NCBI RefSeq assembly: GCF_003366055.1
Contig: NZ_CP025544.1
Span: 541,278 to 605,277 of the forward strand
DNA from: Candidatus Chromulinivorax destructor
GTDB lineage: Bacteria > Babelota > Babeliae > Babelales > Chromulinivoraceae
Direction: 5' to 3'
DNA: 64,000 nt
Below, piece by piece: positions 2,447 to 56,332 of the stretch (position 1 is the first letter of the stretch; the number at the start of each line of letters is the position of its first letter). The notes under the pieces were generated by a model. That model was not told the DNA's origin. It was given only the letters and a program-made list of their open reading frames with translations, and ran no database searches. Both the position numbers and the translations under genes were made by a program.

Positions 2447-2653
2447 CTAGGTTCTGTGAACAAAATTTTTACGAAAGAGTTTTGCCCTACGTTTTCTACG
2501 AAAACTCCGGGAATTTGCTGGCCGGTGGGCCTGATACACTCTTTTTTTAGATAAAAAAGCGTAAAGTGGCCGCCGCCACTCATGTTTCCGGAGATGAGCG
2601 GAGCGATATCGTAGGATTGCATGCTACTTTTAAATTTGGTTAACTCAGCCTAG
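2447..2653 (+). repeat. foldback repeat copy 1 (short form, forward)
   Basis: This 207-bp element begins CTAGGTTCTGTGAAC and ends GTTAACTCAGCCTAG, imperfect terminal inverted repeats. Inside, CCTACG pairs with a later CGTAGG, and CTCCGG with CCGGAG. Local hairpins are GTTTTC-tac-GAAAAC, GGCC-ggtg-GGCC and GTGGC-cgcc-GCCAC. It fills the gap between two exported-protein genes. The open frame across it on the minus strand is not a gene. Confidence 0.85.
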
Positions 2654-2693
2654 TCTTGCTATTGACTCTTTACAATGTTTTATTAAAAAAGCA

Positions 2694-2722
2694 TTGAATA
2701 GTCGTTCTTTTAATTCTATACT
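2694..2722 (+). promoter_or_regulatory. sigma70-type promoter for the gene at 2762
   Basis: TTGAAT (2694-2699), a 17-base spacer and TATACT (2717-2722) make a good consensus promoter. The start codon lies about 40 bases downstream of the -10 box. Confidence 0.55.
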
Positions 2723-2761
2723 GTGCATGAAATAGTACATTATTATTTAAAAGGGGTTTTC

Positions 2762-3457
2762 ATGAAAACATTTCGCATAGCATTAACAGCAGCAATGTTA
2801 CTATCGTTACATGCAACATACTTCTGTATGGAATCAACTGACAAACCTGCCCTTACACGCACATTAAGTCATGATGGAACAAGAAAAGTTCTCACTGGTA
2901 ATAGTGGTGGCTTGTTTGGATCGGGAATAGATACCCTTAATAAATTAGGGCAAGAGTACGCACCAGGCTATGTCTATGCACTTGGATCAGATAAACACGC
3001 TCAAAGTCGCTGGGAAAATGTTGGTAAACATGATATTAAAACTCTAGAGCATGCCTATAAGTATGTTGCAGCTGTACAATCTAAAGGCTGGAACATATCT
3101 GAAGATGCATTAAAACCTTCACGTGATTTAATTAAAACTGATAGAAATAACAAACGGGAACTAAGTGTTAAATCTTTCAATGCACTCAATGAAAAAGGTT
3201 TACAACTTATTTATGCTTCTGCTGAAAGACAAAAACAAAAAAAATCACATACACCTTTAGATTTACAAGACCTTGAGAATCTAAAGAATTTACAAGAACT
3301 CCAAGCTCAAGCTCGTGCGCACAAAGATTTACACAATGCAACATATAAAAAAAATCTTATAACAACACCTATTAACATTCAAAGTATGGATAAAACAACT
3401 CCAGAAACTTATAAAAAACAGATTGAATACTTAGGGAAATTACACTCAAAAAAATAG
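2762..3457 (+). CDS. exported protein, unknown function
   Basis: I do not recognise this 231-residue protein. The ATG at 2762 follows a strong AAAAGGGG Shine-Dalgarno; an upstream ATG in the same frame (2723) lacks one. The N-terminus, MKTFRIALTAAMLLSLHATYF, is a signal peptide. The mature part has a glycine-rich patch (GNSGGLFGSG, about residues 48-57), then a basic, helical, charged region ending in Lys-Lys. An RNA hairpin with a T run follows the stop. With the good promoter at 2694-2722 this is a single-gene unit, probably well expressed. It shares only general style (exported, helical, Lys/Gln-rich) with the other exported proteins here. Confidence 0.6.
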   Translation: MKTFRIALTAAMLLSLHATYFCMESTDKPALTRTLSHDGTRKVLTGNSGGLFGSGIDTLNKLGQEYAPGYVYALGSDKHAQSRWENVGKHDIKTLEHAYKYVAAVQSKGWNISEDALKPSRDLIKTDRNNKRELSVKSFNALNEKGLQLIYASAERQKQKKSHTPLDLQDLENLKNLQELQAQARAHKDLHNATYKKNLITTPINIQSMDKTTPETYKKQIEYLGKLHSKK

Positions 3458-3480
3458 CCTTCTATTTAAATAGATCCAGG

Positions 3481-3511
3481 AAAAAAGCTCTGATTCGTCA
3501 GGGCTTTTTTC
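3481..3511 (+). terminator. intrinsic terminator
   Basis: AAAAAAGCTCTGA, a TTCG tetraloop and TCAGGGCTTTTTT form a stable stem with a T tail 23 bases after the stop of the exported-protein gene. Confidence 0.8.
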
Positions 3512-3566
3512 TTGCCCATGGAAAAAAATATCGAATCTGCTATACTGAGTATGTCGTAATTTTCTT

Positions 3567-4517
3567 ATGCAAAACAAAGTATGTACTATGACAAACCTTA
3601 ATAAAATCAAAATATTACCAGCTCACGAAGCAATTAAGATCGCCGCTGGTGAAGTTGTTGAACGTCCAAGTAATATCATTAAAGAACTTGTTGAAAATAG
3701 CATCGACGCAGGCTCTACAAAAATTACCATCACCGTGCATCAAGCAGGTACATCATTAATTATTATCACGGATAATGGCTGCGGTATGTCGGCAGATGAT
3801 GCAAAATTATCAGTCGCTCAACACGCAACAAGTAAAATTACAACGGTGCATGATCTTGAATCTATTACAACTTTTGGCTTTCGTGGCGAAGCTCTTGCAA
3901 GCATTAACTCTGTAAGCAAACTAAGTATTACGACAAAAACTGAATCAGATCAAACTGGTACTTACATTGCTTGGAGTTTTGGAAATTTAATCGAAGAATC
4001 ATTGCGAACGCATCAAACCGGTACAACCATACAAATTGCTGATCTGTTTGAAAATATTCCTGCCCGTAAAAAATTTCTTAAAAAAAATGAAACTGAATTT
4101 CGAGCAATCGTCACGCTGTTTCAGGCTCTTTGTTTAGACTACCAGTCTATACATTTTCAGCTGTATGATGAACATAAGCTTCATTTTAATTGTCCTGCAG
4201 TTACCAAGCTTATAGATCGCTGCGCACAGCTATTTGATTTTAATTTATATAATAAAATGATACCGCTCACAGAACTAACAAACTCCTTATGCTCAGTTTC
4301 TGGTATTGTTTCGGTTCCTAGTTATTATCGCTATGATCGCAATCAGATTTTTATTTTTGTTAATAATCGCTGGATTAAAAATATCGATATAACCAAAGCA
4401 ATTATGAAAGGCTATGCCGGGCAACTTCCTCCACAAAAATTTCCTGCTGCTGCAATTTTTATTACCTTACCTTCTGACCAGGTTGATGTAAACATTCATC
4501 CAAAAAAGAAGAAATAA
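3567..4517 (+). CDS. mutL: DNA mismatch repair protein MutL, N-terminal part (frame 0)
   Basis: MutL couples mismatch recognition by MutS to strand removal. This part holds the GHKL ATPase and transducer domains: AAGEVVERP, ENSIDAGS (Mg/ATP), DNGCGM, TSKI and GFRGEALASI are all present, and residues ~200-310 match the transducer fold with VNNRW. The frame ends after NIHPKKKK, right inside the conserved MutL motif NVHP-x-K-x-E-x-x-F. If reading slips back one base at the heptamer A-AAA-AAG (4502-4508) the motif is restored as HPKKEEIKF and translation continues to 5530. The start could also be the ATG at 3588 (MTNLNKIKIL), which fits family alignments better. No MutS gene is in the window. Confidence 0.9.
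   Translation: MQNKVCTMTNLNKIKILPAHEAIKIAAGEVVERPSNIIKELVENSIDAGSTKITITVHQAGTSLIIITDNGCGMSADDAKLSVAQHATSKITTVHDLESITTFGFRGEALASINSVSKLSITTKTESDQTGTYIAWSFGNLIEESLRTHQTGTTIQIADLFENIPARKKFLKKNETEFRAIVTLFQALCLDYQSIHFQLYDEHKLHFNCPAVTKLIDRCAQLFDFNLYNKMIPLTELTNSLCSVSGIVSVPSYYRYDRNQIFIFVNNRWIKNIDITKAIMKGYAGQLPPQKFPAAAIFITLPSDQVDVNIHPKKKK
4502..4508 (+). promoter_or_regulatory. A-AAA-AAG slippery heptamer inside mutL
   Basis: The sequence lies in the zero frame as CCA AAA AAG, the exact X-XXY-YYZ phase used for -1 ribosomal frameshifting (as in E. coli dnaX). After a -1 slip the next codons read Glu-Glu-Ile-Lys-Phe and restore the conserved MutL motif. A weak stem (AAGAA / TTCTT) lies just downstream; I see no clear upstream Shine-Dalgarno stimulator. 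A single missing A in the run would give the same picture. Confidence 0.5.
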
Positions 4518-4597
4518 AGTTCTTACATCCAAAAAAAATTGAAGCCGTAATTATCAATAGCTTAAAAGCAACCTTTGAAGAAACAGTCTCTGCCCAG

Positions 4598-5530
4598 ATG
4601 CCAACATCTTTTGCGCAACCAAAAACAACTGCTCAATACCCTGCATTTTCTGTTGAGGTACAAAAATCTCATCAATCTATCAACCCTATCGATATAAAAA
4701 CTTTTAATAATTTTAATTCTTTTGATATTACAGCTGATAAAAACAACTCAATTCCAACAAGTTATAACAGCACCTCTGTCGATACCAAAGTTGAAGAAGA
4801 AACAATAGAATTTACCCCGCCAATGTTTGCATCGCACGCATTTCAAACTCCGGCACAACATCACGATGAAAATATTGAACCAGTGTACGAACAGATAGAA
4901 ATAACACAACATCATGATGCTATTATTATAGGCCAATACAAAACAACCTATATTTTGTTTGAAAAAAATAGCAATTTAGTTTTTGTTGATCAGCATGCGG
5001 CACATGAAAGAATTTTGTACGAACAGTTCAAAAAAAACTTTGCTGATATTGCAACAGTACACCTGATTTTTCCTGAATTTATTAAATTATCATCGCATGA
5101 TATTATGACAATAACACCGTATCTTTCGCTTTTGCGTGATCATGGTATTCATGCAGAACTTTTTTCTGATACACAGCTCATGGTTCAAGCAACACCAGTT
5201 CACCTAAAAAACCAACTGTTACATGAAACAATACAACAAATCATTAGTTGGATTGATACAATCGATGAAAATGACCCTGCAAGAATATCAAACCTGCTCC
5301 ATGAAAAAATTCATACAAAAATGGCATGTTCAGCTGCTATCAAGGCTGGTGAAAAATTAAATTTACAACAAATGCAGCAATTATTAGATGATCTTGCTAG
5401 AATAGAACATCGATACTCATGCCCACATGGTCGCCCAACATTTTGGATCTTGCCAATTGAAGACATTGAAAAAAAATTCAAGCGCGATTATGGAAAAAAA
5501 TCAGAACAATTTTATGATTTTTTATCATAA
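4598..5530 (+). CDS. mutL: DNA mismatch repair protein MutL, C-terminal part (-1 frame)
   Basis: This is the dimerisation and endonuclease half of MutL. The frame is open from 4509, so the ATG at 4598 is only the first methionine and probably not a true start. A low-complexity linker (about 100 residues after the ATG) leads into the C-terminal domain. It has the metal-binding motif DQHA-AH-E-RILY-E, then ACSAAIKAGEKL and CPHGRPT. These mark it as the latent-endonuclease type of MutL found in bacteria without MutH, rather than the E. coli type. Both halves keep every expected motif, which argues that the full protein is made or that the frame break is a sequencing error, rather than an old pseudogene. 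Confidence 0.88.
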   Translation: MPTSFAQPKTTAQYPAFSVEVQKSHQSINPIDIKTFNNFNSFDITADKNNSIPTSYNSTSVDTKVEEETIEFTPPMFASHAFQTPAQHHDENIEPVYEQIEITQHHDAIIIGQYKTTYILFEKNSNLVFVDQHAAHERILYEQFKKNFADIATVHLIFPEFIKLSSHDIMTITPYLSLLRDHGIHAELFSDTQLMVQATPVHLKNQLLHETIQQIISWIDTIDENDPARISNLLHEKIHTKMACSAAIKAGEKLNLQQMQQLLDDLARIEHRYSCPHGRPTFWILPIEDIEKKFKRDYGKKSEQFYDFLS

Positions 5531-5567
5531 GAAATCAATCTTAATATCTACGAAAATCTAATACAAT

Positions 5568-6305
5568 ATGACCTATACTTACTCTCAAATTCCCTGGTTA
5601 CTTTGCCTTATTCTTATTGCGCTTGTTTTTTATTTATACTTACGATTAAGTCAAAATACCCCTGTTATAAAAACAAATAAATTACGAAAAAATATGTCTG
5701 CACAAGAAGCTCTTGACATGCTTTTGCAAGGAAATAATGAATATATTCAAAGTGGGACCTCAGAATTTGACCGCAAATCTGTAGCTCATAGCCAACATCC
5801 ATGTGCAATCATTTTAAGCTGCTCAGATTCACGCGTCTCGCCAGAACTCATATTTAATCAACTTCACGTTGGTAATTTATTTATTGTGCGTAATGCTGGT
5901 AACATCTTAGACGAGATGGTTCTTGGAAGCATTGAATACGGAGTCAAACACCTTGCCTCTCCATTGATTATTGTGCTCGGACATGATCGATGTGAAGCTA
6001 TAAAAGCGACTGTTGAGTCTGTACTTGAAAATCAAATCGAATGCTCAAGCCACATCAAACATATTATTAATATTATGAAACCAACAGCTCAAGATATTAT
6101 TGATGATATGAAAATAGGAACAGAAATCTCTGTAGAAACTAAAAATGAAATTATAAAAAAGACTGCTTTTGCAAATATTCATCGAGTTATGAGTAAAATA
6201 TCTCAAAATTCAGTCATTATATCACAAGCCTTACAAGAAAATAAAATCAAACTCGTTGGAGCTTATTACGATTTAGATCACGGTAATTTACGATTTATCG
6301 ATTAA
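5568..6305 (+). CDS. beta-class carbonic anhydrase, membrane anchored
   Basis: It interconverts CO2 and bicarbonate. The zinc ligands and catalytic dyad of beta carbonic anhydrases are visible: CSDSR with Cys85, Asp87 and Arg89, and GHDRC with His139 and Cys142 (the usual form is GHTxCG). RNAGN and the YGVKHL stretch also fit. Unlike most family members it carries an N-terminal membrane segment (residues 8-26, IPWLLCLILIALVFYLYLR), so the enzyme is anchored or exported. A start at the Met near residue 43 (MSAQEAL) would give a soluble enzyme. The start at 5568 has no clear Shine-Dalgarno. The region between about residues 150 and 210 is longer than usual. A bidirectional terminator follows. 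Confidence 0.88.
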   Translation: MTYTYSQIPWLLCLILIALVFYLYLRLSQNTPVIKTNKLRKNMSAQEALDMLLQGNNEYIQSGTSEFDRKSVAHSQHPCAIILSCSDSRVSPELIFNQLHVGNLFIVRNAGNILDEMVLGSIEYGVKHLASPLIIVLGHDRCEAIKATVESVLENQIECSSHIKHIINIMKPTAQDIIDDMKIGTEISVETKNEIIKKTAFANIHRVMSKISQNSVIISQALQENKIKLVGAYYDLDHGNLRFID

Positions 6306-6307
6306 CT

Positions 6308-6353
6308 AAAAAGGCTCATGAAATTATTATCTAATTTCATGAGCCTTTTTTTA
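6308..6353. terminator. bidirectional terminator
   Basis: AAAAGGCTCATGAAATTA and its complement form a long stem with A and T runs on both sides. It separates the convergent carbonic anhydrase (plus) and Nudix (minus) genes. Confidence 0.85.
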
Positions 6354-6776
6354 TTTTATGTTCCTGACAATCTCTTTAAGTGATGCAAGCAGCGGCTGCA
6401 TTGCATCAAAAACAATAAATTTATCAAGATCTTCAAGATCTATCCAATGTCCCTGCAAAACTTCGACAGGACATAAGTTAATCGAACCTTGCACAGATGC
6501 ACAAAACAACATAACTTCTTTTTGATACGTAACTTTTCCATGCCCTTTATACATAACAAATAATGGTTCTACGGGATAATACGCAACAACAGACAGTCCA
6601 GTTTCTTCAAATAGCTCTCGTTCTGCAGATTCTTTTGCAGATTCATTTTGTTCTGCATGCCCTTTTGGAAAGCTCCAATAACTATTCGTCTGCTGCACAA
6701 CAAAAGATTGCCATCTACCATCTACTTTTTGCAAAGGGATAATTCCATACGAATAGTCTTTTACAAGTGCACTCAT
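6351..6776 (-). CDS. Nudix hydrolase
   Basis: A 141-residue hydrolase of nucleoside diphosphate-linked compounds. The Nudix box is complete: GHAEQNESAKESAERELFEETGL fits G-x5-E-x7-REU-x-EE-x-G-U and carries the Mg-binding glutamates. YSYGIIPL at the N-terminus and SYWSFPKGHAE before the box resemble the diadenosine tetraphosphatase-like branch, though substrate cannot be fixed from sequence. I chose the ATG at 6776 because it overlaps the stop of the upstream membrane-protein gene as ATGA, implying translational coupling. A GTG nine bases further up is less likely. Confidence 0.88.
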   Translation of the reverse strand: MSALVKDYSYGIIPLQKVDGRWQSFVVQQTNSYWSFPKGHAEQNESAKESAERELFEETGLSVVAYYPVEPLFVMYKGHGKVTYQKEVMLFCASVQGSINLCPVEVLQGHWIDLEDLDKFIVFDAMQPLLASLKEIVRNIK

Positions 6777-7744
6777 GATGCACACTCACATGAACTACAA
6801 CTTGGCTTATCAATTGCAGGACAAGCAAGTTGTCTATAGGTGTGAGCTTCTACCAGGTAATACCACACCATGACAAAAACCCAAAACATAAATCTAAAAA
6901 GCGCTGTCAAGATGCTTTGCATCATAATAACCATATCAAGAGACATAACATGAATCAAAAATTGAGAGCTGATATAATCAAAAATATAGCCACCAATAAC
7001 AAAAAGAACTGCGCCACTTACCAAGAATAAAAAGATAGATGTTATTTGAAGTATAGATATTGCAGATAAAAATTTCATTTTACCACAGGTCATATGCAAA
7101 CTTGCTTGTATAGATTTTCTTATACACAGCTTATATTCAAACAGATGCATGCCAACAAATCGAAGCCGTTGATACATATAATTATATATAAACAATGCTC
7201 CAAATAGTAAAACTAACAATAAAAGCGTTGCCCATGCTGAATCCATTGCTTGCAATCCAAGATATTCAAGCCAATTATCATGAAAGTTTACCAACATCAT
7301 CCGTACGAAGAAAAAAGTATAGACCGTTATCATAAAACTAAGAATAGGTCCTTTAATAGAAAAACCTCGCATTGCAGAATCAAAAGCCAGGTCTAAAGCA
7401 TTTTGGATAATAACGATAGGAAATACAATATAAAAAAGCATGTCACAAAGAATTGCGGCAACAAGTTTAAAAATCAATAAAAAAGAACTACAATTCAATG
7501 CTAATTCATAATATTCTTGGCCTAATATATATTCAAAAGGACGTAATCCAAGAAAAACATCAGGAAACGAAATTATAAAGGAACCCGGCAAAAAAATATA
7601 AAAAGATAACAAGGTATATATGAGTGTTTGCAGCCCACAGATGTACAGCCAAGTATTTATATTATTTGCAATATCATAGCGAGCAAGAGCGAAAATTTTC
7701 ATAATCGATTGCCACATATTTTTAAAACTTATAGGTATATTCAT
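6773..7744 (-). CDS. multipass membrane protein with cysteine-rich tail
   Basis: A 323-residue protein with about six hydrophobic helices. The ATG at 7744 follows a perfect AAGGAG Shine-Dalgarno. It is paralogous to the split gene just upstream: both have a helix pair around a conserved segment (here LRFVGMHLFEYKLCIRKSIQASL, there LRVSFIPQILLEQQGSITRAF), which places them near the loosely defined DUF975/YciC-type membrane families. I cannot name a function. The last 16 residues hold four cysteines in a row of short spacings (CPAIDKPSCSSCECAS), which could bind metal or be lipidated. It is translationally coupled to the Nudix gene. Confidence 0.65.
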   Translation of the reverse strand: MNIPISFKNMWQSIMKIFALARYDIANNINTWLYICGLQTLIYTLLSFYIFLPGSFIISFPDVFLGLRPFEYILGQEYYELALNCSSFLLIFKLVAAILCDMLFYIVFPIVIIQNALDLAFDSAMRGFSIKGPILSFMITVYTFFFVRMMLVNFHDNWLEYLGLQAMDSAWATLLLLVLLFGALFIYNYMYQRLRFVGMHLFEYKLCIRKSIQASLHMTCGKMKFLSAISILQITSIFLFLVSGAVLFVIGGYIFDYISSQFLIHVMSLDMVIMMQSILTALFRFMFWVFVMVWYYLVEAHTYRQLACPAIDKPSCSSCECAS

Positions 7745-7763
7745 AGCTCTCCTTATTGTGTTT

Positions 7764-8554: not shown

Positions 8555-8624
8555 AATAAAATCCAATAAATTTAGGTGCACGTAATAATTTTTTGAACAT
8601 ACCATATAATGGTAATAAAAAATA

Positions 8625-8828: not shown

Positions 8829-9015
8829 ATAACAACTCCTTACCTCAACTCAATAATTTTTATATAACTATTTTTACTTTTTTATTATAAAGCAATTATA
8901 CAATATTATACCATAGACTCATACGTAACATTTTTTTAAAATAAAAACAGTTGAAATCATTATGTAAATTTGCCATTTTTAAGAATATTTCACCCCTTAA
9001 CAATCGAAAGTCATT

Positions 9016-9597: not shown

Positions 9598-9604
9598 ATA
9601 GCAT

Positions 9605-9648: not shown

Positions 9649-9659
9649 CCTTACTCTTG

Positions 9660-9927
9660 AGGTTCTCTAAACCAAATGTGTACGAAAGATTTTTTCCTTA
9701 CATTTTCTATGAAAACTCCCGGAATTTTTTGACCGGCAGGCCTGATGCACTTTTTTTAAATCTTAGTCAGGTTTAATTTCTCAAATTTTGCTTCGTTTTT
9801 TGCATAAATTGACCTAATTTTTCATGAAAAAAGCGTAACGTGGCCGCCGCCACCACTGTTTGCCAAGATGAGCGAAGCGATATCGTAGGATTGTACACAA
9901 GTTTTAAATTTGGTTCACACAGCCTAG
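9660..9927 (+). repeat. foldback repeat copy 2 (long form, forward)
   Basis: This copy has the same ends and inner hairpins as copy 1 but is 268 bp long, because of an extra block of about 70 bp at 9757-9826 between the GGCC hairpin and AAAAAAGCGTAACGTGG. The same block is present in copies 5 and 9. Together with the terminator it fills the 421-bp gap between the hemerythrin gene and the next exported-protein gene. Confidence 0.85.
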
Positions 9928-15062: not shown

Positions 15063-15148
15063 ACTTACATCACTTTCTCTATAATTTTTATCCAAAGTTG
15101 CTTTATATTGGTATAAAAATTAAAAAAAGTCTTATCATTTTTATATGA

Positions 15149-15352
15149 GGCTCTGTAGTTCAAATTTTTACTATAGAATTTTACCCTCCGTTTTCTACGA
15201 AAACTCCGGGAATTTGCGGGCCGGTGGGCCTCATGCACTATTTCTTTACATAAAAAAAGCGTAACGTGGCTGCCGCCACCACTGCTTGCCAAGATGAGCG
15301 AAGCGATATCGTAGGTTTTTGTGCACATGTAAATTTGGTTCACACAGCCTAG
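15149..15352 (+). repeat. foldback repeat copy 3 (short form, forward)
   Basis: A 204-bp copy that runs from AGGCTCTGTAGTTCAAATTT to AAATTTGGTTCACACAGCCTAG. It is closest to copy 10 (shared ATTTCTTTACATAAAAAAAGCG and the right-hand GTGCACATGT). It fills the 331-bp gap between the oxygenase gene and the yaiI-like gene. The 92-codon minus-strand frame across it is not a gene. Confidence 0.85.
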
Positions 15353-24950: not shown

Positions 24951-25125
24951 ACAAAATTACAAGGACCTACGATATCGCTGTGCTCATCTCCGGAAATATG
25001 GGCGGCGGCGGCCGCTATACGCTTTTTTAGTTTAAAAAATAGTGCATCAGGCCCACCGGCTTCAATACTCCCGAAGTTTTTGTAAAAAATGTAGGGCAAA
25101 TCCCCATCGTAAAAATTTGATGTAC
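24951..25125 (-). repeat. foldback repeat copy 4 (degenerate, reverse)
   Basis: About 175 bp. The core is clear (ACGATATCGCTGTGCTCATCTCCGG, GGCGGCGGC, TAGTGCATCAGGCCCACCGG, TTTTTGTAAAAAATGTAGGGC), but the outer inverted repeats are badly eroded. It looks the oldest of the ten copies. It lies between tamB and the end of the GspE/PilB gene. Confidence 0.7.
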
Positions 25126-33630: not shown

Positions 33631-33900
33631 CTAGGTCCTGTGAACCAAATTTTTATTTTAGAGATTTACCCTACGTTTTTTACAAAAACTCCGGGAATCG
33701 GCAGGCCAGTGCGCCTGATGCACTTTTTTTTAAATCTTAGCCAAGTTTAATTTTTTAAAGTTTGCTTCGTTTTTTGCATAGATTGACGTAGTTTTTCATT
33801 AAAAAAGCGTAACGTGGCCGCCGCCACCACTCTTTCCGGAGATGAGCGAAGCGATATCGTAGGTTTTTGTGCACATGTAAATTTAGTTCACACAGCCTAG
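33631..33900 (+). repeat. foldback repeat copy 5 (long form, forward)
   Basis: A 270-bp copy from CTAGGTCCTGTGAACCAAATTT to AAATTTAGTTCACACAGCCTAG with the ~70-bp insert block at about 33731-33802. It is very close to copy 2. It sits in the 687-bp gap between the coiled-coil protein and the beta-barrel gene, with a terminator on each side and a remnant of barrel-gene sequence at 33949-33996. Confidence 0.88.
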
Positions 33901-39579: not shown

Positions 39580-39712
39580 AAAATAGCAATCTTTCATGCA
39601 TGAATAGATAGAAAAATCTTTACACCGGCAAAGATCTTTCTATCATACAAAGTCATTCATATATTTCAATAGACTTTTTCATAACCTATACAAGATAATA
39701 GAACTTTTATTT

Positions 39713-39914
39713 TAGGCTGTGTGAAGCAAATTTACATGTGTATAAAATCCTACGATATTGGTGTGCTCATCTCCGGAAACATCCCTGGCCAGGGCAACTT
39801 TACGCTTTTTAAGTTTAAAAAATAGTACATCAAGCCACCTGCCAGCAAATTCCCGGAGTTTTAGTAGAAAACGTAGAGTAAAACTTGAGAGTTAAAATTT
39901 GGCTCTCTCAACCG
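39713..39914 (-). repeat. foldback repeat copy 6 (short form, reverse)
   Basis: About 200 bp from TAGGCTGTGTGAAGCAAATTT to AAATTTGGCTCTCTCAACC. The GTGGC-GCC hairpin of other copies is replaced by a different palindrome, CCCTGGCCAGGG, so the inner stem has changed sequence but kept the capacity to pair. It fills the 347-bp gap between pgeF and the exported-protein gene. Confidence 0.8.
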
Positions 39915-42233: not shown

Positions 42234-42426
42234 CACAGCTCCTTTAATAGCCTTTATATACAAAAATCATAGAATAGCTCATAGCCTGTCCTATTAAGAA
42301 TGCTTTTGTAAAGAATATATAAAAAAATAGTTGATTAAGATGATTCTTGCATACTTATAGATAAAAATTTTGTGAGTTTATTACAAGGTTTTTGCCTACA
42401 ACTTACTCTGCCTTATTAAATTTTGA

Positions 42427-42632
42427 TAGGCTGCATAAACTAAATTTAAAATTAAGATACAAGCCTTGCATATCGCTTTGCTGATCTCCGGAAATATCGG
42501 TGGCGGCGGCCAGTTTACGCTTTTTTCATGTAAAAAATAGTGCCTTAGGCAGACCAGCCAGCAATTTCCCGGGAGTTTTCGTAAAAAACGTAAGGTAAAA
42601 CTTGAGAATGAAAAATTGAGAAACTCAACCTA
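42427..42632 (-). repeat. foldback repeat copy 7 (short form, reverse)
   Basis: A 206-bp copy with ends TAGGCTGCATAAACTAAATTT and AAATTGAGAAACTCAACCTA. It shares CTTTTTTCATGTAAAAAATAGTGCC with copy 8 on the other side of the ankyrin gene, in the same orientation. It occupies most of the 505-bp gap between ftsZ and the ankyrin gene. Confidence 0.85.
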
Positions 42633-43820: not shown

Positions 43821-43835
43821 ATTTCAATAAAATTT

Positions 43836-44038
43836 AAGCTTTATGAATCAAATTTAAAAGTAGCATAGAACTTGCGATATCGCTTTGCTCATCTCCGGAA
43901 ATATTGGTTTCCAGGGCCACTTTACGCTTTTTTCATGTAAAAAATAGTGCCTCAGGCCCACCGACCAAAAAATTCCTGGAGTTTTTGTAAAAAACGTAGA
44001 GTCAATCTTTAACGTAAAAAATTGGTTCACAGAACCTA
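43836..44038 (-). repeat. foldback repeat copy 8 (short form, reverse)
   Basis: A 203-bp copy beginning TAAGCTTTATGAATCAAATTT and ending AAATTGGTTCACAGAACCTAA. The 43835-44040 gap beyond it holds only the end of the ankyrin gene. Together with copy 7 in the same orientation it brackets the ankyrin gene. Confidence 0.85.
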
Positions 44039-47416: not shown

Positions 47417-49960
47417 TTAATCTTCTTGTTTAGTTAACTTTTTTGATGTGCTATCTTTCATAAAACCTTGCTCAACTAATGCATCTTTCACTTTTTGGGG
47501 TAAAGTCGTTATATCTTCTACAATATAACCATGATAAATATCTTCTTCTTCATACTTTAAAATTACAACTTTACCATCCTGAACAGCTACACGCTGAGTT
47601 GATTTTTCAACAGAAAATGAATTATCCAAAGCATCTTGTCCATCTCGTGGAGGCTTTCCTATATGATCTGGACTGTTTGGATGATGCTTTGGAGATGGTC
47701 GATACGTTCCATGAGGCGCTTTAGAATTATTATTATTCTGCTCTTTATTTCGATTTGCCTGCAAAATAAAATCATCAGGATCTTGGTTGCCATGAGAACC
47801 GCACCCAGGAGAATCTTTATCTAAATCTGGGGCAGCTGGATCAGATTGACCACATCCAGTTGATTTTGATTCTGGTTCATCAGTTGGACCATGAGCAGTA
47901 TCAGTAGGTCCTTGCTGTGGAGTCGTTGGTGTTGTCAAGGTTGTTGGGGTTTGCAATTCATCAGTTACTCCTCCACAACCACTATTTGGTGAAGGCGTTT
48001 GTGGTGTACTGTCCATAGGAGTCGAATCTGATGAAGATTCTGAAGTCGAATTCGTTGTTGATTGATTGCCTGAATTATTATCAATTTGATTACAAGAAGG
48101 AGTATCTTTTGATGAGACTGGTTTTGTTGCGTTTGTAATAATCGTATGATTACGTGAATAATTTGTGATTACCCATCTATTATTCTCTTTATCTAAAGTC
48201 CAGGAATAACCTTTTACATCATAATAACAACCATCATTACCTCGTAAAGGTTTACCATCTTTAGATAATGCAGCCTGAAAAGTTTCCGCTGAAGAGCTAA
48301 CCGGAAAATAAGCAGAATGATCTGGAAGAAGATCATAAATTTCAGGAGTTGGAAGATTCTTTTCAATAGTACTTAAGACTTTATCAACTTCTGCCTGCTT
48401 TTTTGCAGCAGCAGCTTGAATGGCTGGCTGATTATTTTTGACATAGTCAGCCACCTTTGCTTTAACATCTGGTGCAGAATATAAATAATTCTCCATACCA
48501 TACATAGGCGGTATCTCATGCACATCATGAGAATTTCTTGGAATAAGGTATAATCTTTGAGATCCATTATTTTCAAGCACAACAAGAAGTTGGCACTGCC
48601 TCCCGTCATACTCTATAGGAATCAAACGCGCATCTAAAATATCATCTTGCTTAACAGCTCCCAAAGATCCAATATTAATAGCTTTCTCAAGAGAATATGC
48701 TAAATCTCGCGAATATTTTTCTAATTGATCAAGAACTGATCTTTCTTCAGGTGTCAATTTTTTATAATTTCTTGCCTGCTGTATATAGTCAAAAATAAAT
48801 TCTCTATTTTGATACATAAAGCTTCCGGCAAGAATTCCTACTCCAATAGGTCCTGCAAAAGTTCCTAGAAGAGACTCTAAAATATATGCTTCTGCCAACA
48901 CAACACTTGTTGCCATTATCCTTTTTTGCTCAGAATATTCATTGATTGCATAACTATCGCAATTAAGATTTTCAAGAAAAGAAAAAATATCTTCTAAGTA
49001 TTTTTCATGCTGAGCTTGATAGGTATTTTCTATATTATTTTTGTCTGAATGCCTTGCAATAACTCGCTCTTTATCTCGTGTATCTATGTTGATAAAAGCA
49101 ATAAGTGCCTGTACCAGCTCATCAAATATTTTTTCTTTTTCTTTGCTTGCCCCAGGTTCTAATAATTTTGCAATAACTTGACTGAAAAAAATATACGCCT
49201 GTATCTTTTTTTCTTTTTGAGCTTTTTCTATATCAGTTAATTGATATGATTTTTTATTTTTATATAAAAAATGCCGATTTTCTTTTTCATACAAAGCATG
49301 CGCGGTAAAAAAAGCTTTTATTTCTTCACACTGCTTACGATAAACAAGATTTTTTGTAAGCTCTTCTGGTTCTATAACAGACTGTTTTGTTTGTTTAGTT
49401 CTATCGATCTGCGCTTTCTCTTGGGTGTCTTGTATAAAAAAACTTGCTCCAACAATAAAAAATCCTGCTCCAAGTGCAAGTGGCGCTGATAATACTAGAC
49501 CACTTGTTGCAAGACCGTATATACAAGCTGCAGCTGCCATTGCAGAATAATCTACACCTGCTTGAAGTGAGGTTACTGGAGGAGATTGTCGATCTTCATC
49601 ATGATCATCAGAATCACGATCATCTTTTGATGTGTCAGATTGCTGACCTGGGGCTAATTCAAACCATGTACCAGATGAGTGCTTTGCTGTAGGATTACTT
49701 TTTTCTTTTTCTTTTGAACGCTTTAAAGCAACAACCCTATCAGCAACGCGAGAACCCCGTGGTGCTATATAAGGAGTTTTCTTAGGAGAATTTGTTGAAT
49801 TGGTTTGTTCAATCGGGGCAATAAAAGTCTTATCTGGAATACTTTTATTGATCTGATTACATACATTTTTATTTTTTGTAATATTTTTATTAAATTTTTC
49901 AGTTGCTTGCAATGAAAAAAAACAGACCAAAATCATGCATAGAGATAACAGCTTCTTCAT
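47417..49960 (-). CDS. exported polymorphic toxin-like protein
   Basis: An 847-residue protein. The signal peptide MKKLLSLCMILVCFFSLQA starts at the ATG at 49960; a further open frame upstream lies in foldback repeat 9 and is not coding. Residues ~130-175 hold hydrophobic stretches (AAACIYGLATSGLVLSAPLALGAGFFIVG), probably two membrane or pore-forming helices, then a helical domain (~200-520). Residues ~620-740 are a Ser/Thr/Pro/Gly-rich linker with repeated Gly-Cys-Gly. The last ~100 residues (HGTYRPSPKHHPNSPDHIGKPPRDGQDALDNS, then RVAVQDGKVVIL and HGYIVEDITTLPQKVKDAL) resemble a polymorphic toxin tip. Two candidate immunity genes follow. Whether the target is rivals or host is unknown. Confidence 0.55.
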   Translation of the reverse strand: MKKLLSLCMILVCFFSLQATEKFNKNITKNKNVCNQINKSIPDKTFIAPIEQTNSTNSPKKTPYIAPRGSRVADRVVALKRSKEKEKSNPTAKHSSGTWFELAPGQQSDTSKDDRDSDDHDEDRQSPPVTSLQAGVDYSAMAAAACIYGLATSGLVLSAPLALGAGFFIVGASFFIQDTQEKAQIDRTKQTKQSVIEPEELTKNLVYRKQCEEIKAFFTAHALYEKENRHFLYKNKKSYQLTDIEKAQKEKKIQAYIFFSQVIAKLLEPGASKEKEKIFDELVQALIAFINIDTRDKERVIARHSDKNNIENTYQAQHEKYLEDIFSFLENLNCDSYAINEYSEQKRIMATSVVLAEAYILESLLGTFAGPIGVGILAGSFMYQNREFIFDYIQQARNYKKLTPEERSVLDQLEKYSRDLAYSLEKAINIGSLGAVKQDDILDARLIPIEYDGRQCQLLVVLENNGSQRLYLIPRNSHDVHEIPPMYGMENYLYSAPDVKAKVADYVKNNQPAIQAAAAKKQAEVDKVLSTIEKNLPTPEIYDLLPDHSAYFPVSSSAETFQAALSKDGKPLRGNDGCYYDVKGYSWTLDKENNRWVITNYSRNHTIITNATKPVSSKDTPSCNQIDNNSGNQSTTNSTSESSSDSTPMDSTPQTPSPNSGCGGVTDELQTPTTLTTPTTPQQGPTDTAHGPTDEPESKSTGCGQSDPAAPDLDKDSPGCGSHGNQDPDDFILQANRNKEQNNNNSKAPHGTYRPSPKHHPNSPDHIGKPPRDGQDALDNSFSVEKSTQRVAVQDGKVVILKYEEEDIYHGYIVEDITTLPQKVKDALVEQGFMKDSTSKKLTKQED

Positions 49961-50073
49961 AAGTGATTTTCGATAAAAAAGTAGAAATAATGTATATAAA
50001 CTGTATGTAAAATTGAACTTTTTTAACAAATAAGTCAAATATAAAAACTTGTATATACAGCTACCAATCAATA

Positions 50074-50342
50074 CTAAGCTGTGTGAATCAAATTTAAAAG
50101 TCGTGTACAATCCTACGATATCGCTTCGCTCATCTCCGGAAGCAGTAGTGGCGGCAGCCACGTTACGCTTTTTTTATGAAAAACTACGTCAATCTATGTA
50201 AAAAACGAAATAAACTTTGAGAAATTAAACCTGGCTAAGATTTAAAAAGAGTGCATCTGGCCCACTGGCCTGCAAATTCCCGGAGTTTTTGTAAAAAACG
50301 TAGGGTAAAAATCTTTAGTAAAAATTTGGTTCACAGAACCTA
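50074..50342 (-). repeat. foldback repeat copy 9 (long form, reverse)
   Basis: A 269-bp copy from CTAAGCTGTGTGAATCAAATTT to AAATTTGGTTCACAGAACCTA, with the insert block at about 50174-50254. Together with a terminator it accounts for the 557-bp gap upstream of the toxin gene. Its right end GGTTC-aca-GAACC is itself a short palindrome. Confidence 0.88.
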
Positions 50343-50430
50343 CAATGACTATGAGAGTTTAAATTTTAAGGCTTACAAATAATTGTTTCTATTCATCACA
50401 ACAAAAGGTAAATCCATAGATTTTTATGTG

Positions 50431-50496
50431 CAAAAAAGCATCTTTTTTACATTGCCAACTACAAAAGCTGAACAACAAAAAAAGATGCTTTTTTTA
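50431..50496 (-). terminator. terminator after the exported 177-residue protein
   Basis: AAAAAAGCATCTTTTTT and AAAAAAAGATGCTTTTTTT pair over a long loop, with a T run on both strands. Confidence 0.7.
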
Positions 50497-50517
50497 TAAC
50501 TATATTTTTTAATTTTT

Positions 50518-51051: not shown

Positions 51052-51097
51052 AACAATACAACTCCCTTAAAAACTCTCTCTATTTTAATAACTTTTA

Positions 51098-51835: not shown

Positions 51836-51901
51836 AAGATTCCGCTCATCCGCCAAAGTTTTTCACAACGGCTTCATTTGATTTAATTTGAAAATAGATA
51901 G

Positions 51902-51930
51902 ATTATATCAAGCTTACTGCATCTACTAAA
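51902..51930 (-). promoter_or_regulatory. promoter for the rlmB-type gene
   Basis: On the minus strand, TTTAGT (51925-51930), a 17-base spacer and TATAAT (51902-51907) form a promoter 67 bases upstream of the start. Confidence 0.45.
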
Positions 51931-52009
51931 CGGCGTCAATTTGCAATTAATAAAAAATAAAATCAGCAAAAAATAGATTAAAAACTGATATTTTTTTACA
52001 CTAAACAGT

Positions 52010-53161
52010 ATGAAAAAACTCTTCAACAAAACTCCACAAATCTTTTCCGATTCAGGCATTGTAACCACACCAGACTTACTTAAAAACTGGATCGAATTAA
52101 GCAAGTCTGCTGCAACAGCAAATGCTCAGCAATTTCAGCAGTGGCTTGGACCTGTGACAAAGATATCTGCAGTATTAAAATCAAATGCTTACGGACATGG
52201 ACTTATTGCAATGGCTACTCTTTATGATGAGTGTGATGCTATTGCAACATTGTCAGTTATTAATCTTTACGAAGCTGTTCAACTTCGCCAACATGGTATT
52301 AAAAAAACAATTTTGGTTATTGGATATCTTGATGCAGCCTACGACCTTATCGTCAAATATGACATCCATGTTGTCATCTACGACCTATTGCTCGCAGAAC
52401 AATTAAACGAAGTTGGTAAAAAATACAACACTCAGATTATTGTTCATATAAAATTTGATAGCGGCATGCATCGACTTGGAATTCTTCCTGATAACCTGGA
52501 TCAATTTATACAAGAACTTAAAAAATTACCTTTTATTACTATTCAAGGAATTTTTTCTCACTTTGCCCAAAGTTACATTGCTACAACAACACATCATCAA
52601 GAAGATGTCTTTGTTATCGCAACTCATTATGGATTACAAACCCATATTTCTAATTCTCATGGCACCTTGACTGCACATCATAAAAACTATACTTTTGCAC
52701 GCATAGGCATTGGTCTGTATGGCTATCTTCAAAAATATGATCAAGATGTTCAAAACATGCTTAAACCTGTATTATCATTAAAAACAAGAATTCTTCAAAT
52801 CAAACAGGTCAAAGCAGGATCTTTTATAGGATACGACGCTACGTACCAAGCTCCAACTGATATCACGATTGCAATCATAGCAATTGGTTACGCTGAAGGG
52901 CTTGATGCTCGCTTGTCAAATTGCGGATCAGTTATGATTAACGATCAATTTGCTCCCATTATTGGCAGAGTGTGCATGAATTTAACCATTGTTAATATCA
53001 GCTCTATACAAAATTGTAGCGTAGGACAGGTAGTAACCGTGCTTGGATCTGAAAAGAATTTATCAATAAGCGCGTATGATTGGTCGGCTCTCACGCAAGC
53101 GAGTGCTTATAATCATCTAACTAAAATTTCGTCATCTCTTGTTAAAATTATTGTTGATTAA
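52010..53161 (+). CDS. alr: alanine racemase
   Basis: A 383-residue PLP enzyme that makes D-alanine for peptidoglycan. The PLP-binding Lys is in AVLKSNAYGHG (Lys57). The second catalytic residue, Tyr, is in SFIGYDATYQAP (about residue 270). GYAEGLDARLSN and IIGRVCMNLTIV complete the family pattern, with Asn in place of the usual Asp in the GRV-x-MD segment. It is read divergently from the rlmB-type gene. With pgeF, ftsQAZ and SecA it shows that the cell keeps a peptidoglycan-dependent division system. Confidence 0.93.
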   Translation: MKKLFNKTPQIFSDSGIVTTPDLLKNWIELSKSAATANAQQFQQWLGPVTKISAVLKSNAYGHGLIAMATLYDECDAIATLSVINLYEAVQLRQHGIKKTILVIGYLDAAYDLIVKYDIHVVIYDLLLAEQLNEVGKKYNTQIIVHIKFDSGMHRLGILPDNLDQFIQELKKLPFITIQGIFSHFAQSYIATTTHHQEDVFVIATHYGLQTHISNSHGTLTAHHKNYTFARIGIGLYGYLQKYDQDVQNMLKPVLSLKTRILQIKQVKAGSFIGYDATYQAPTDITIAIIAIGYAEGLDARLSNCGSVMINDQFAPIIGRVCMNLTIVNISSIQNCSVGQVVTVLGSEKNLSISAYDWSALTQASAYNHLTKISSSLVKIIVD

Positions 53162-53242
53162 TTTTTTATCATATAAAAAATTGCATAAAAAATTCATATA
53201 AACGCTTGCACCATAAAAAACGCCGTACAAAATTGACAACTA

Positions 53243-53272
53243 TTGATTTTCTTAACATCATTGTGATAAAAT
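53243..53272 (+). promoter_or_regulatory. possible promoter for the small exported protein
   Basis: TTGATT (53243-53248), 18 bases, TAAAAT (53267-53272), with a TGTG just upstream of the -10 box. A TTGACA ten bases further upstream is too far away. Confidence 0.35.
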
Positions 53273-53311
53273 TTTTTCAGATATGATTCTAAATAAAAAA
53301 AGGAGATCACT

Positions 53312-53695
53312 ATGAAAAAAAATCTATACGCAATGCTTTTAGTTGTAGCTGTTGGATCAATAGCTAATGTACAAGCAGGTTGTTCATCATGTAAAAAAAC
53401 AACAGTTCAAGTCTCTTCAGACTCAGGCAAAGTATCTTCATCAACAGCTGAATATAAAGACAGAATGCATAACATTGAAGAATGCATTAAATCAGTAAAA
53501 GATAAAGCATTAGGCAAAAAGAAATCAGCTTCGCTTGCAGAATTGACAACAATTGAAGCAAAAGTTGATGACTTTGCTCAAGATACATTCCGTGATGCAA
53601 ATGATAAATTTAACATGCATGCTAAACATGTTCGTAAATTAAGATCTGAACTAAAACATGCTCGTGAATACGTAAAGAAAAATGGTATTAACTAA
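53312..53695 (+). CDS. small exported helical protein, unknown function
   Basis: A 127-residue protein with a signal peptide (MKKNLYAMLLVVAVGSIANVQA) cut before GCSSCKK; the two cysteines near the mature start may form a disulfide or bind lipid, though VQAGC is not a perfect lipobox. The rest is charged and helical with short heptads (YKDRMHNIEECIKSVKDKALGKKK, FNMHAKHVRKLRSELKHAREYVKKN). A very strong AAAAAAGGAGA Shine-Dalgarno suggests high expression. I recognise no family. Confidence 0.6.
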   Translation: MKKNLYAMLLVVAVGSIANVQAGCSSCKKTTVQVSSDSGKVSSSTAEYKDRMHNIEECIKSVKDKALGKKKSASLAELTTIEAKVDDFAQDTFRDANDKFNMHAKHVRKLRSELKHAREYVKKNGIN

Positions 53696-53730
53696 TACAA
53701 GCAATGCGCTCTAGTTAAGAATCAAATCAA

Positions 53731-53770
53731 TGAGAGCCCCAATATTATATTATTGAGGGCTCAATTTTTT
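53731..53770 (+). terminator. intrinsic terminator
   Basis: TGAGAGCCC and GGGCTCA pair, with AATA-TTATT continuing the stem, followed by six T. It ends the small exported-protein gene. Confidence 0.65.
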
Positions 53771-53791
53771 AATTTCAAAAAAGGAAAAAAT

Positions 53792-54262
53792 ATGAAAAAT
53801 ATCAACGCGTATCATATACTCATGTTACTTATGGTAACAACAACATCAACAAGTCTTATGTCAATGAATCAACTTCGCAAAAGTGTAAACTCAACAGCTC
53901 ATAGCGCTACATCAGCAGCAAGTAATGCAGTTGGTCAGGCAACAAATGCAATTGAAAACAATGTTGTTAATCCAATTGAAAATAATGTAATTCACCCAAC
54001 TCAGAAAATTGGTGAATCTGTTGTAGAACATAGCAAAGAAGCTATTAAAACAGCAGAAGAAGCTGTTGATACAACAGGCAAAATAATTAAAGCATTACCT
54101 TCAATTATCAGAGAGCTTTCAGATATTATGAAAGATCTTCAAAATATTATCAATACAGGAATGGCATCTGCTCAAGCTACATCTGCAGCAATGAACCCTC
54201 TTACAAAAGAGATGTCTCAGTCGATTGGAAAACTACAAGAAACTATATCTCATCTGATATAA
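53792..54262 (+). CDS. exported amphipathic-helix protein, unknown function
   Basis: A 156-residue exported protein. The ATG at 53792 follows AAAAAAGG; the frame is open 13 codons further up without support. After a signal peptide (MKNINAYHILMLLMVTTTSTSLMS), the mature part is a row of Ala/Ser/Thr/Asn-rich amphipathic helices with 11-residue-like repeats (TAHSATSAASNAVGQATNAIENNVVNPIENNVIHPTQK), similar in look to apolipoprotein or LEA-like proteins. Hydrophobic positions recur regularly to the end. The family is unknown. A terminator follows. Confidence 0.55.
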   Translation: MKNINAYHILMLLMVTTTSTSLMSMNQLRKSVNSTAHSATSAASNAVGQATNAIENNVVNPIENNVIHPTQKIGESVVEHSKEAIKTAEEAVDTTGKIIKALPSIIRELSDIMKDLQNIINTGMASAQATSAAMNPLTKEMSQSIGKLQETISHLI

Positions 54263-54284
54263 TCTCATTGTACATGGTATCTTA

Positions 54285-54318
54285 TATGGCTGGTTGTTAT
54301 ATAACAATCAGCCATTTT
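54285..54318 (+). terminator. intrinsic terminator
   Basis: ATGGCTGGTTGTTA and TAACAATCAGCCAT pair in a 14-bp stem with one mismatch, followed by T-rich sequence. Confidence 0.75.
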
Positions 54319-54428
54319 TATATCCTGCTATCAGATAAAAATAATAATTTCAAGTCTTATAAAAACTTAATCTTGCCTTATACTTATATTTCATCCACAA
54401 ATTTATAGTAGATTACAAGGCATACAAA

Positions 54429-55133
54429 ATGTTTATTGTTGAAGGAAATATTGGCACGGGCAAATCAACGTTCTTAAAAGCGTTGCAACATTCTTTATCA
54501 AACGTTATTGTTACCCTTGAAGCTGTTGATTATTGGCAAAACGAATCAACAGGGCAATCTATTTTACAAAATTTCTATGAATCCCCACACCGTTGGGCAT
54601 ATACAATGGAAACACTTGCTTTAAAAGTTCGTATTCCAGAGCATATCAAACAACAAGCATCAAGCTTGCCAAATATTGTTGAACGATCAATCTATTCAGG
54701 TTATCATTGCTTTGCTCACAACAGCTTTGAGCAAGGTTATCTTAATCAGTTAGAATGGAATATTTACAATAGCTGGTTTAATTTTTCAACTGCTAAACGT
54801 TGCTTAGCCCCTACAGGTTTTATTTACCTACAAGCTGATCCAAAAATTTCTTATCAACGCACCGTTGAACGCCAAAGGGAAGCTGAAAACTCAATTTCAT
54901 TTGAATATTTACAGCAAATTCACGATAAACACGAAGCTTTTTTAATTCACAAACAAAACATCCATCCTTCAATCATGCATGTGCCTGTTTTAGTTTTAGA
55001 TTGTAATTACGATATCGTTCATGATAATAACAAACTATTGCAATACGTAGAACTTGTTAAAGATTTTATCAAAACTCACAGTCAACATCATGTTGAGTTA
55101 CAAATTTTACAACCACTGCATAAAAATCTATAA
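54429..55133 (+). CDS. deoxynucleoside kinase
   Basis: A 234-residue kinase of the dNK/dGK/TK2 family that phosphorylates deoxynucleosides for DNA synthesis. The P-loop is GNIGTGKS (residues 6-13), near EAVDYWQNE. ERSIYSGYHCFA holds the family's E-R-S pattern, and QRTVERQREAE the lid with its arginines. It has no signal peptide. Salvage fits an organism that takes nucleosides from its host. Bacterial members are known (for example in Bacillus and Mycoplasma), so a eukaryotic origin is not required. A weak Shine-Dalgarno precedes the ATG. Confidence 0.88.
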   Translation: MFIVEGNIGTGKSTFLKALQHSLSNVIVTLEAVDYWQNESTGQSILQNFYESPHRWAYTMETLALKVRIPEHIKQQASSLPNIVERSIYSGYHCFAHNSFEQGYLNQLEWNIYNSWFNFSTAKRCLAPTGFIYLQADPKISYQRTVERQREAENSISFEYLQQIHDKHEAFLIHKQNIHPSIMHVPVLVLDCNYDIVHDNNKLLQYVELVKDFIKTHSQHHVELQILQPLHKNL

Positions 55134-55206
55134 CATTCAATCGTAAATTTCCCTGCTCCTGCCCACCAAAAAGTTTTCTTATAGAAAAACAATAGATTAA
55201 AATCAT

Positions 55207-55235
55207 TGATTCTAGCAAGTCAAACATGGTACAAT
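55207..55235 (+). promoter_or_regulatory. sigma70-type promoter for the gene at 55267
   Basis: TTGATT (55207-55212), a 17-base spacer and TACAAT (55230-55235), about 30 bases before the start codon. Confidence 0.55.
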
Positions 55236-55266
55236 GTTTCATATTGAAATTAATAAGGAGTTTTCT

Positions 55267-56061
55267 ATGAAAAAATTTAATAAAAACATTTTTAAAATGT
55301 TACTCTTACTGGCAGTTGGCAATTCATCACACATGATTTTGACGATGGAAGAAGATAATTATGATGAAGAATATGAATTTTTCCATGTGTCAATGCCATC
55401 GTATCAACAATCGGATCTTGATGCTACAGCAGATATAGATTCAGACAATGACTCAGTTTCATCAGAACATAGTGATTCAAGTTATGTTTTTGAAAAAGTA
55501 TATTACAACCCACATCAACTTGATGTAAGTTCTTACGAAATCGACAATGATCAAGAAGATGAATCACCTTTTGTAGAAGGCATTGCCTACACAAGCCCAG
55601 ATACTTTTGTTCTTACAGAAGTTGTAAAACTTGATGAGCAATCAATTCCAGTTGATTTTTACAGTTCAGAACATAAACGCAAAACAGCTGCTCATAATAT
55701 CATCCAAGGTATTCTTGCGAGACTAGAAGCAACAGACCGTGATCTTAATCAAACAGAACATCAATTAGATAGCCTTGAAAAGGCTTCCCATAAAGATGTC
55801 ACCATGCAAGAAAAATCATTACAATTAATTGAACAAGATATTGATGAAGCGACAGACGAATTAGCAGCTGTTGCATCAAATATTCGTGTGCTTGCACATT
55901 CAACAGATAAATCTGTTAAAGGACAATTTGACAAAGCTCAGGGTACTATAACACGATCACACAATAAAGCTGTTAATGATTTAGAAAAGGTAAGAAAAAA
56001 ATTACAGAATCAGTCTAAAAAAATTAATAGAAAAATTAAAAAAACACTCAAAATTAAGTAA
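55267..56061 (+). CDS. exported acidic and coiled-coil protein, unknown function
   Basis: A 264-residue protein with a signal peptide (MKKFNKNIFKMLLLLAVGNSSHM). Residues ~25-125 are very acidic and Ser/Asp/Glu-rich (EEDNYDEEYEF, DIDSDNDSVSSEHSDSS), probably disordered. From ~135 on it is a coiled coil (ILARLEATDRDLNQTEHQLDSLEKA, DLEKVRKKLQNQSKKINRKIKKTLKIK), ending strongly basic. The charge separation is unusual. AATAAGGAG precedes the ATG. I recognise no family. Confidence 0.6.
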   Translation: MKKFNKNIFKMLLLLAVGNSSHMILTMEEDNYDEEYEFFHVSMPSYQQSDLDATADIDSDNDSVSSEHSDSSYVFEKVYYNPHQLDVSSYEIDNDQEDESPFVEGIAYTSPDTFVLTEVVKLDEQSIPVDFYSSEHKRKTAAHNIIQGILARLEATDRDLNQTEHQLDSLEKASHKDVTMQEKSLQLIEQDIDEATDELAAVASNIRVLAHSTDKSVKGQFDKAQGTITRSHNKAVNDLEKVRKKLQNQSKKINRKIKKTLKIK

Positions 56062-56076
56062 ATATAATTTCTTAAT

Positions 56077-56111
56077 AAAAAAGTACCCAGTCTAAACTGG
56101 GTACTTTTTTT
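56077..56111 (+). terminator. intrinsic terminator
   Basis: AAAAAAGTACCCAG and CTGGGTACTTTTTT form a 14-bp stem with a six-base loop and T run. Confidence 0.9.
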
Positions 56112-56126
56112 ACTATAAATATCTTT

Positions 56127-56332
56127 AAGTTGAGTAAACCAAATTTTTACTCTAAAGATTTACCCTACATTTTCTACGAAAACTCCGGGAATTTGCTAGC
56201 CGGTTGGCCTCATGCACTATTTCTTTACATAAAAAAAAGCGTAACGTGGCCGCTGCCACAATTGTTTGCCAAGATGAGTGAAGCGATACCATAGGTTTTT
56301 GTGCACATGTAAATTTGGTTCACGCAGCCTAG
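56127..56332 (+). repeat. foldback repeat copy 10 (short form, forward)
   Basis: A 206-bp copy close to copy 3, ending AAATTTGGTTCACGCAGCCTAG. It stops five bases before the stop codon of the neighbouring minus-strand gene (56337), so it lies immediately downstream of that gene. Its left end is next to a terminator. Confidence 0.88.

What the first reader, a model, noticed from the sequence alone, without database searches (positions are those of the whole stretch)
2447..56332. A family of ten intergenic foldback elements with terminal inverted repeats
Ten copies (2447-2653, 9660-9927, 15149-15352, 24951-25125, 33631-33900, 39713-39914, 42427-42632, 43836-44038, 50074-50342, 56127-56332), five in each orientation, share ends of the form CTAGGCTGTGTGAACCAAATTT and its complement. 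The whole element reads as one long imperfect inverted repeat: CCTACG pairs with CGTAGG, CTCCGG with CCGGAG, with nested hairpins GTTTTC-tac-GAAAAC, GGCC-ggtg-GGCC, GTGGC-cgcc-GCCAC. No copy lies in a gene; together they fill nearly every gap over 300 bp. They look like MITEs or a structured intergenic RNA. I see no transposase and no open frame shared by the copies.
Basis: seen in the sequence. Interest (0 to 1): 0.85.

Follow-up and report, generated by a model that had tools for sequence, protein, structure and literature searches.

The report
Mobile elements sharing one folded core
A bacterium that parasitises protists carries about 150 copies of a tiny gene-free jumping DNA element, and its relatives carry the same hairpin-rich core inside quite different transposon ends, as if one folded module keeps changing which transposase moves it.

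Summary
The ten copies are real. A covariance model built from them finds 148 copies in the 1,174,272-bp genome (Chromulinavorax destructans, Dependentiae) and copies in the two other sampled genomes of the genus, but not beyond it. In this genome they are MITEs. Their ends (TAGGTTSTGTGAACCAAATTT, in a YTA|..|TAR context) match those of IS5-family insertion sequences in related genomes. This genome has no intact IS of that kind.

The unexpected part is the interior. A ~135-nt core made of two stacked four-way junctions (stems P1, H1, P2, H4; then P2, H2, P3, H3) recurs in at least five sets of unrelated terminal inverted repeats across three genomes. One shell type leaves 8-bp target duplications. 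Two elements join the left half of one type to the right half of another, and one of these has a perfect 8-bp duplication. Covariation of the named pairs (summed score 570) far exceeds a tree-aware null (maximum 128 in 200) and slid controls (28-99).

"MITE" is therefore supported, and the pairing is under constraint. A strand-specific intergenic RNA is not shown: there is no gene-orientation bias (30 same, 33 opposite) and no Rfam match. What the core does remains inference. I favour a DNA-level fold that aids mobilisation by various transposases.

The parts
2449..2653 (+). S1 element, short form; core 2484-2618; flanks YTA..TAR
   Evidence: R1 and R2 CM matches, E 2.1e-65 and 2.0e-41
9660..9927 (+). 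S1 element, long form (~63-bp insert in P3 loop); core 9695-9892
15148..15352 (+). S1 element; core 15183-15318; GCCAAG variant of the 3' strand of P2
24937..25132 (-). S1 element with degenerate ends; core 24963-25097
33633..33900 (+). S1 element, long form; core 33668-33866
39712..39914 (-). S1 element; core 39746-39879
42426..42631 (-). S1 element; core 42462-42596
43834..44037 (-). S1 element; core 43868-44002
50074..50341 (-). S1 element, long form; core 50109-50306; overlaps the 5' extension (upstream GTG) of ORF 47417..50161 by 88 bp
56127..56332 (+). S1 element; core 56162-56298; GCCAAG variant

Best explanation
The copies are a MITE family (shell S1). It was mobilised in the past by an IS5-family DDE transposase that inserts at YTAR and duplicates TA. 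The cognate IS is no longer intact in this genome, so the copies are now probably immobile relics of bursts. What unites them with elements in sister species is not the ends but a ~135-nt quasi-palindromic core, which folds into hairpin arms around two stacked four-way junctions. Shown: the same core occurs in at least five shells with unrelated ends, at least one of which transposed with 8-bp duplications. Shown: half-element chimeras exist, so recombination inside the core can join it to new ends. Shown: the pairing is constrained. Inferred: the core is kept because its folding (cruciform or single-strand hairpins) shortens the distance between the ends and makes the element a good substrate for whichever transposase its ends recruit, so selection acts on mobility rather than on a host function.
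For: 148 copies in the genome. Ends match IS5-family ISs: a complete 862-bp IS in G007, with a transposase matching NF033580 at 7.6e-78; collapsed copies at contig ends in G001 and G003; an exact 21/21 end beside a transposase remnant in G034 (L054). YTA|GG..CC|TAR context: 36/39 Y and 35/39 R. Unrelated shells around one core in G001 and G002. 8-bp TSD in G002: at least 7 of 8 matching in 9/19 copies, against 4/342 crossed flanks. Chimeras L103 (TSD 8/8) and L115. Covariation: 570 against a null maximum of 128. MFE of L110 equals the proposed double-junction fold, z -3.9. No gene-orientation or fork-orientation bias.
Against: No single pair passes an individual tree-aware E<0.05. The alignment was fitted to the structure. 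P2 is lost or altered in shells S2 and S5. The autonomous partners of shells S3-S5 were not identified, and no IS66 transposase was found. The mobility role of the core is not tested. Terminal branches show WC to G.U more often than to A.C (122:79), which hints at an RNA on one strand.
Confidence: 0.66

Rival explanations
1. The core is a functional RNA transcribed from one strand, a mobile sRNA or cis-regulatory module, and the transposon shells only spread it.
For: Compensatory pairs in all four hairpins; paired columns change less than unpaired ones even on terminal branches, ratio 0.76; excess of WC to G.U over A.C on terminal branches, 122:79, p 0.003.
Against: No excess on internal branches (41:47); no orientation bias relative to genes (30:33); core is quasi-palindromic, so the antisense strand also matches the model; no Rfam match; no expression data.
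Confidence: 0.22
2. An ordinary IS5-derived MITE. The interior is inert filler inherited from one founder, and the palindromic structure is a passive inverted duplication. Different ends in sister species reflect ordinary end divergence or chance recombination.
For: High copy number, intergenic location, decayed copies with mean pairwise identity 81%; terminal branches break pairs as often as internal ones.
Against: Ends of S1, S2, S3, S4 and S5 are distinct and one has a different TSD length, while hairpin stems were rewritten on both sides with pairing kept (H1 TTTTC/GAAAA, GTTGC/GCAAC, ATTGC/GCAAT, ATTTCC/GGAAAT); summed covariation far above null.
Confidence: 0.2
3. The core is a bidirectional transcription insulator or terminator that makes insertions harmless and so lets the element spread.
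For: Strong GC hairpin followed by a T-tract on the element's minus strand, scored as terminator-like in all three copies scanned; symmetric design; mild shortage between divergent genes (6/87 against 40/348).
Against: The T-tract is missing in shells S3b, S4 and S5; spacing of 7-10 nt is long for an intrinsic terminator; enrichment between convergent genes is mild (18/87 against 48/348).
Confidence: 0.12

Closest known systems
IS5 family (IS427-like, NF033580 transpos_IS5_3) and its MITEs
   Same: Ends and TA-type target context match ISs with this transposase in sister genomes; short and non-coding. The IS427 subgroup label rests on my own knowledge of TA duplication, not on a test here
   Different: The same interior also occurs in shells that do not have these ends; I did not find the interior inside any IS
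RUP, Correia/NEMIS and ERIC bacterial MITEs (reviewed in PMC2229807)
   Same: 100-200 bp, TIRs, TA termini, foldback transcripts; two length classes from an internal insert, as in Correia
   Different: A conserved core with branched junctions, shared between several unrelated end types, was not seen in the passages of that review that I read
CIR elements of Caulobacter and Brucella (PMC2229807)
   Same: Small repeats with more than one hairpin arm, conserved in structure
   Different: Two arms and a linker, with a GANTC methylation motif; no multiple TIR shells reported in the passages read

Membership tests
MITE | Short, no coding capacity | tested here: met
   205 or 268 bp; no shared open frame, longest stretch median 55 codons
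MITE | Terminal inverted repeats | tested here: met
   about 21-bp TIR in intact copies
MITE | Target site duplication | tested here: inconclusive
   S1: TA at both ends within YTAR, consistent with a TA duplication, but 2 bp cannot be separated from the ends without empty sites. Shell S3 in G002: 8-bp TSD met
MITE | Ends match an autonomous element | tested here: met
   IS5-family ISs in G007, G001, G003, G020 and G034; met in relatives, not in this genome
IS5-derived MITE | Intact cognate transposase in the same genome (not required for relic MITEs) | tested here: not met
   No PF01609 or PF13358 match; one decayed 27%-identity transposase remnant without such ends
Structured non-coding RNA family | Covariation beyond phylogeny | tested here: met
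   As a set; not for individual pairs
Structured non-coding RNA family | Transcription as a discrete RNA on a defined strand | not testable with these tools
   No RNA data; indirect strand tests mixed
Known Rfam family | Match at gathering score | tested here: not met
IS66-driven MITE (for shell S3) | IS66 transposase in host | tested here: not met
   PF03050 absent from all 8 genomes of the family; G002 is only 85% complete

The most novel reading that the evidence does not exclude
A structured nucleic-acid module (two stacked four-way junctions) acts as a selfish unit in its own right. It persists through a bacterial genus by repeatedly acquiring, through recombination inside its palindromic core, new terminal repeats that recruit different DDE transposases.
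Probability: 0.35. Interest if true: 0.78.

Novelty: new variant of a known kind. Interest (0 to 1): 0.6.

Why it matters
MITEs are usually defined by their ends, and their interiors are treated as filler. Here the interior is what is conserved, and the ends change. If that holds, non-autonomous elements can switch transposase, which would explain how they outlive their parent IS, and bacteria would have a tractable case of selection on the fold of a mobile element. It is also a prominent, apparently undescribed repeat in the Chromulinavorax genome: about 148 copies, roughly 2-3% of the genome.

Tried and rejected
Kissing interaction between loops GGTG (H2) and CGCC (H3): complementary by sequence, but the loops do not covary (Fisher p 0.68). 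IS630-type source (PF13358) because of the TA context: absent from this genome, and the ISs with matching ends are IS5-type. IS66 as driver of shell S3 because of GTAA ends and an 8-bp TSD: no transposase found. Known RNA family: none. Spread beyond the genus: R1 and R2 over 101 phylum genomes find only the three genus members; the weak R1 matches in G003 and G007 are just IS-type ends. Pattern hits of the core in six unrelated bacteria do not match R2. Viral contigs: none. Insertion bias relative to the replication fork: none (78:69).

Full report
OBSERVATION. The ten copies exist as described, five in each orientation. The window is G000:C1:541278-605277 of a single 1,174,272-base contig. 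A covariance model from the ten copies (R1) finds 148 matches at E<=0.01 in the genome. This is probably a lower bound, since only 150 candidates were scored. Exactly ten lie in the window. The end motif with up to 3 mismatches occurs 106 times, against 0 for the reversed-pattern control. Two corrections: nine of 110 examined copies overlap a predicted ORF by more than 30 bp, and 51 of 80 gaps above 300 bp hold a copy, not nearly all. No frame is open across the copies.

MOBILITY. Among 39 copies with both ends intact, the ends read YTA|GG...CC|TAR: 36/39 pyrimidine on the left, 35/39 purine on the right. Neighbouring copies can share the TA. This genome has no match to DDE_Tnp_1 (PF01609) or DDE_3 (PF13358). 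Sister genomes do. In G007 an 862-bp IS (L012:701-1562) has the ends TAGGTTCTGTGAAC and TAGGCTCTGTGAACAAAATTT, and a transposase that matches NF033580 IS5 family at 7.6e-78, plus PF01609 and PF13340. G001 (same genus) and G003 show ends TAGGCTCTGTGAACCAATTTT and TAGGTTCTGTGAACCAAATTA at contig ends, as expected of multi-copy ISs collapsed in assembly. G034 has an exact 21-base match beside a transposase remnant. The only related transposase trace here is a decayed one at 282667-283083 (27% identity, two stops, no such ends). So S1 is a relic MITE of an IS5-type element. Mean pairwise identity is 81%, with best pairs at 98.5%. Copies rise in number from origin to terminus (13, 16, 21, 29, 35, 33 by sixths; ter half 97 against 50, p 1e-4), using the origin given in PMC6561590.

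THE SURPRISE. In the genus, the interior travels with other ends. S1: TAGGTTSTGTGAACC (C. destructans; also G001 L086). S2: TAGGTTCYGTTGAGTTTT (at least five copies here at 95-97.5% identity; one in G001, about 91-93%). ISs with IS5-type transposases carry S2-like ends in G001 and G046. S3/S3b: GTAACTACTCAG...CTGATTAGTTAC (G002). S4: TATAGGGATCACATTTTGA (G002). S5: TAGATCTCTTTCAAAA (G002). L087 in G001 may be a sixth type. S3 copies have 8-bp target duplications: 9 of 19 match at 7 or 8 of 8 positions, against 4 of 342 crossed flank pairs. One S4 copy, L110, has TATGTGCTA on both sides. The S1/S2 and S3 shells therefore belong to transposases with different staggering. L103 has a left half like S3 (85%) and a right half like S3b (84%), and an 8/8 target duplication, so the recombinant moved as a unit. 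L115 joins S3b (87%) to S5 (91%). G002 is a MAG (JR-MC-A-240519-91), so L115 needs long-read confirmation.

THE CORE. The core-only model R2 was given this fold: P1 CCTACG/CGTAGG; H1; P2 CTCCGGGA/TTCCGGAG; H4 closing the first four-way junction with P1, H1 and P2; and H2, P3 and H3 forming a second inside P2. It matches 139 places here, 44 in G002 and 5 in G001, and none in other genera of the family or in the rest of 101 phylum genomes. The minimum-energy fold of L110, a diverged S4 core not used to build the model, is this fold (-53.9 kcal/mol, z -3.9). Across 124 non-overlapping copies H1, H2, H3 and H4 all show changes on both sides with pairing kept, e.g. H1 TTTTC/GAAAA, GTTGC/GCAAC, ATTGC/GCAAT. 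The summed APC-corrected score over the 38 pairs is 570, against a maximum of 128 in 200 simulations that keep tree and column change counts, and 28-99 when partners are slid. Ten of the top 40 column pairs are named pairs, against at most 2 in the null. Limits: no pair is significant alone, the alignment was fitted to the fold, and P2 is changed in S2 and S5.

HOW IT MAY WORK. Paired columns change less than unpaired ones, more so on internal branches (0.60) than on terminal ones (0.76), and the difference holds for GC and AT columns apart. That suits selection mainly on lineages that keep moving, with looser constraint afterwards. There is no preference for gene direction (30 same, 33 opposite) or fork direction (78:69). 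A strand-specific RNA is weakly suggested only by WC to G.U over A.C on terminal branches (122:79), not on internal ones (41:47). The core is quasi-palindromic, so its antisense also matches the model. I therefore favour a DNA-level role: arms extruded from single-stranded or supercoiled DNA bring the ends together and serve any transposase that reads those ends. Shown: mobility, shared core, chimeras, pairing constraint. Inferred: that folding helps mobility, and that core recombination is how new ends are gained.

KNOWN OR NEW. Bacterial MITEs with foldback transcripts and TA termini are well known (PMC2229807). Searches of the genome paper for transposons, intergenic or insertion sequences found nothing on such repeats, and literature searches found no description of this family, within the limits of that library. 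I file S1 as a new MITE family of the IS5 kind, and the core with interchangeable shells as a new variant of the MITE kind.

Noticed in passing
G000 73386, 197330, 243360, 766229, 784509 (L020, L025, L027, L187, L186): Second, younger MITE family S2 with ends TAGGTTCCGTTGAG, 95-97.5% identical, same core with P2 altered
   Followed up: yes
G000:282667-283083 (L185): Decayed IS5-like transposase remnant, the only related transposase trace found in this genome
   Followed up: partly
G000 whole chromosome: Copy density rises steadily from origin to terminus (13 to about 35 per sixth)
   Followed up: partly
window 9695-9892, 33668-33866, 50109-50306: Long form: ~63-bp insert in the P3 loop (TTAAATCTTAG..GACGTAGTTTTTCAT), in 17 of 73 near-full-length copies; origin unknown
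   Followed up: no
window 15148-15352, 56127-56332, 9660-9927; L091, L108, L109: Alternative CCGGAG or GCCAAG at the 3' strand of P2 recurs in several shells and species, as if exchanged between elements
   Followed up: no
L047 1295 (G001:C1 about 86771): End TAGACCTCTTTTAAAA, like shell S5, lies about 200 bp from a DDE_Tnp_1 fragment: possible parent IS of S5
   Followed up: no
G000:79403 and 175365: Partial, very diverged core-like stretches with different hairpins (E 7-9 in nhmmer, so possibly chance); may be older families
   Followed up: no
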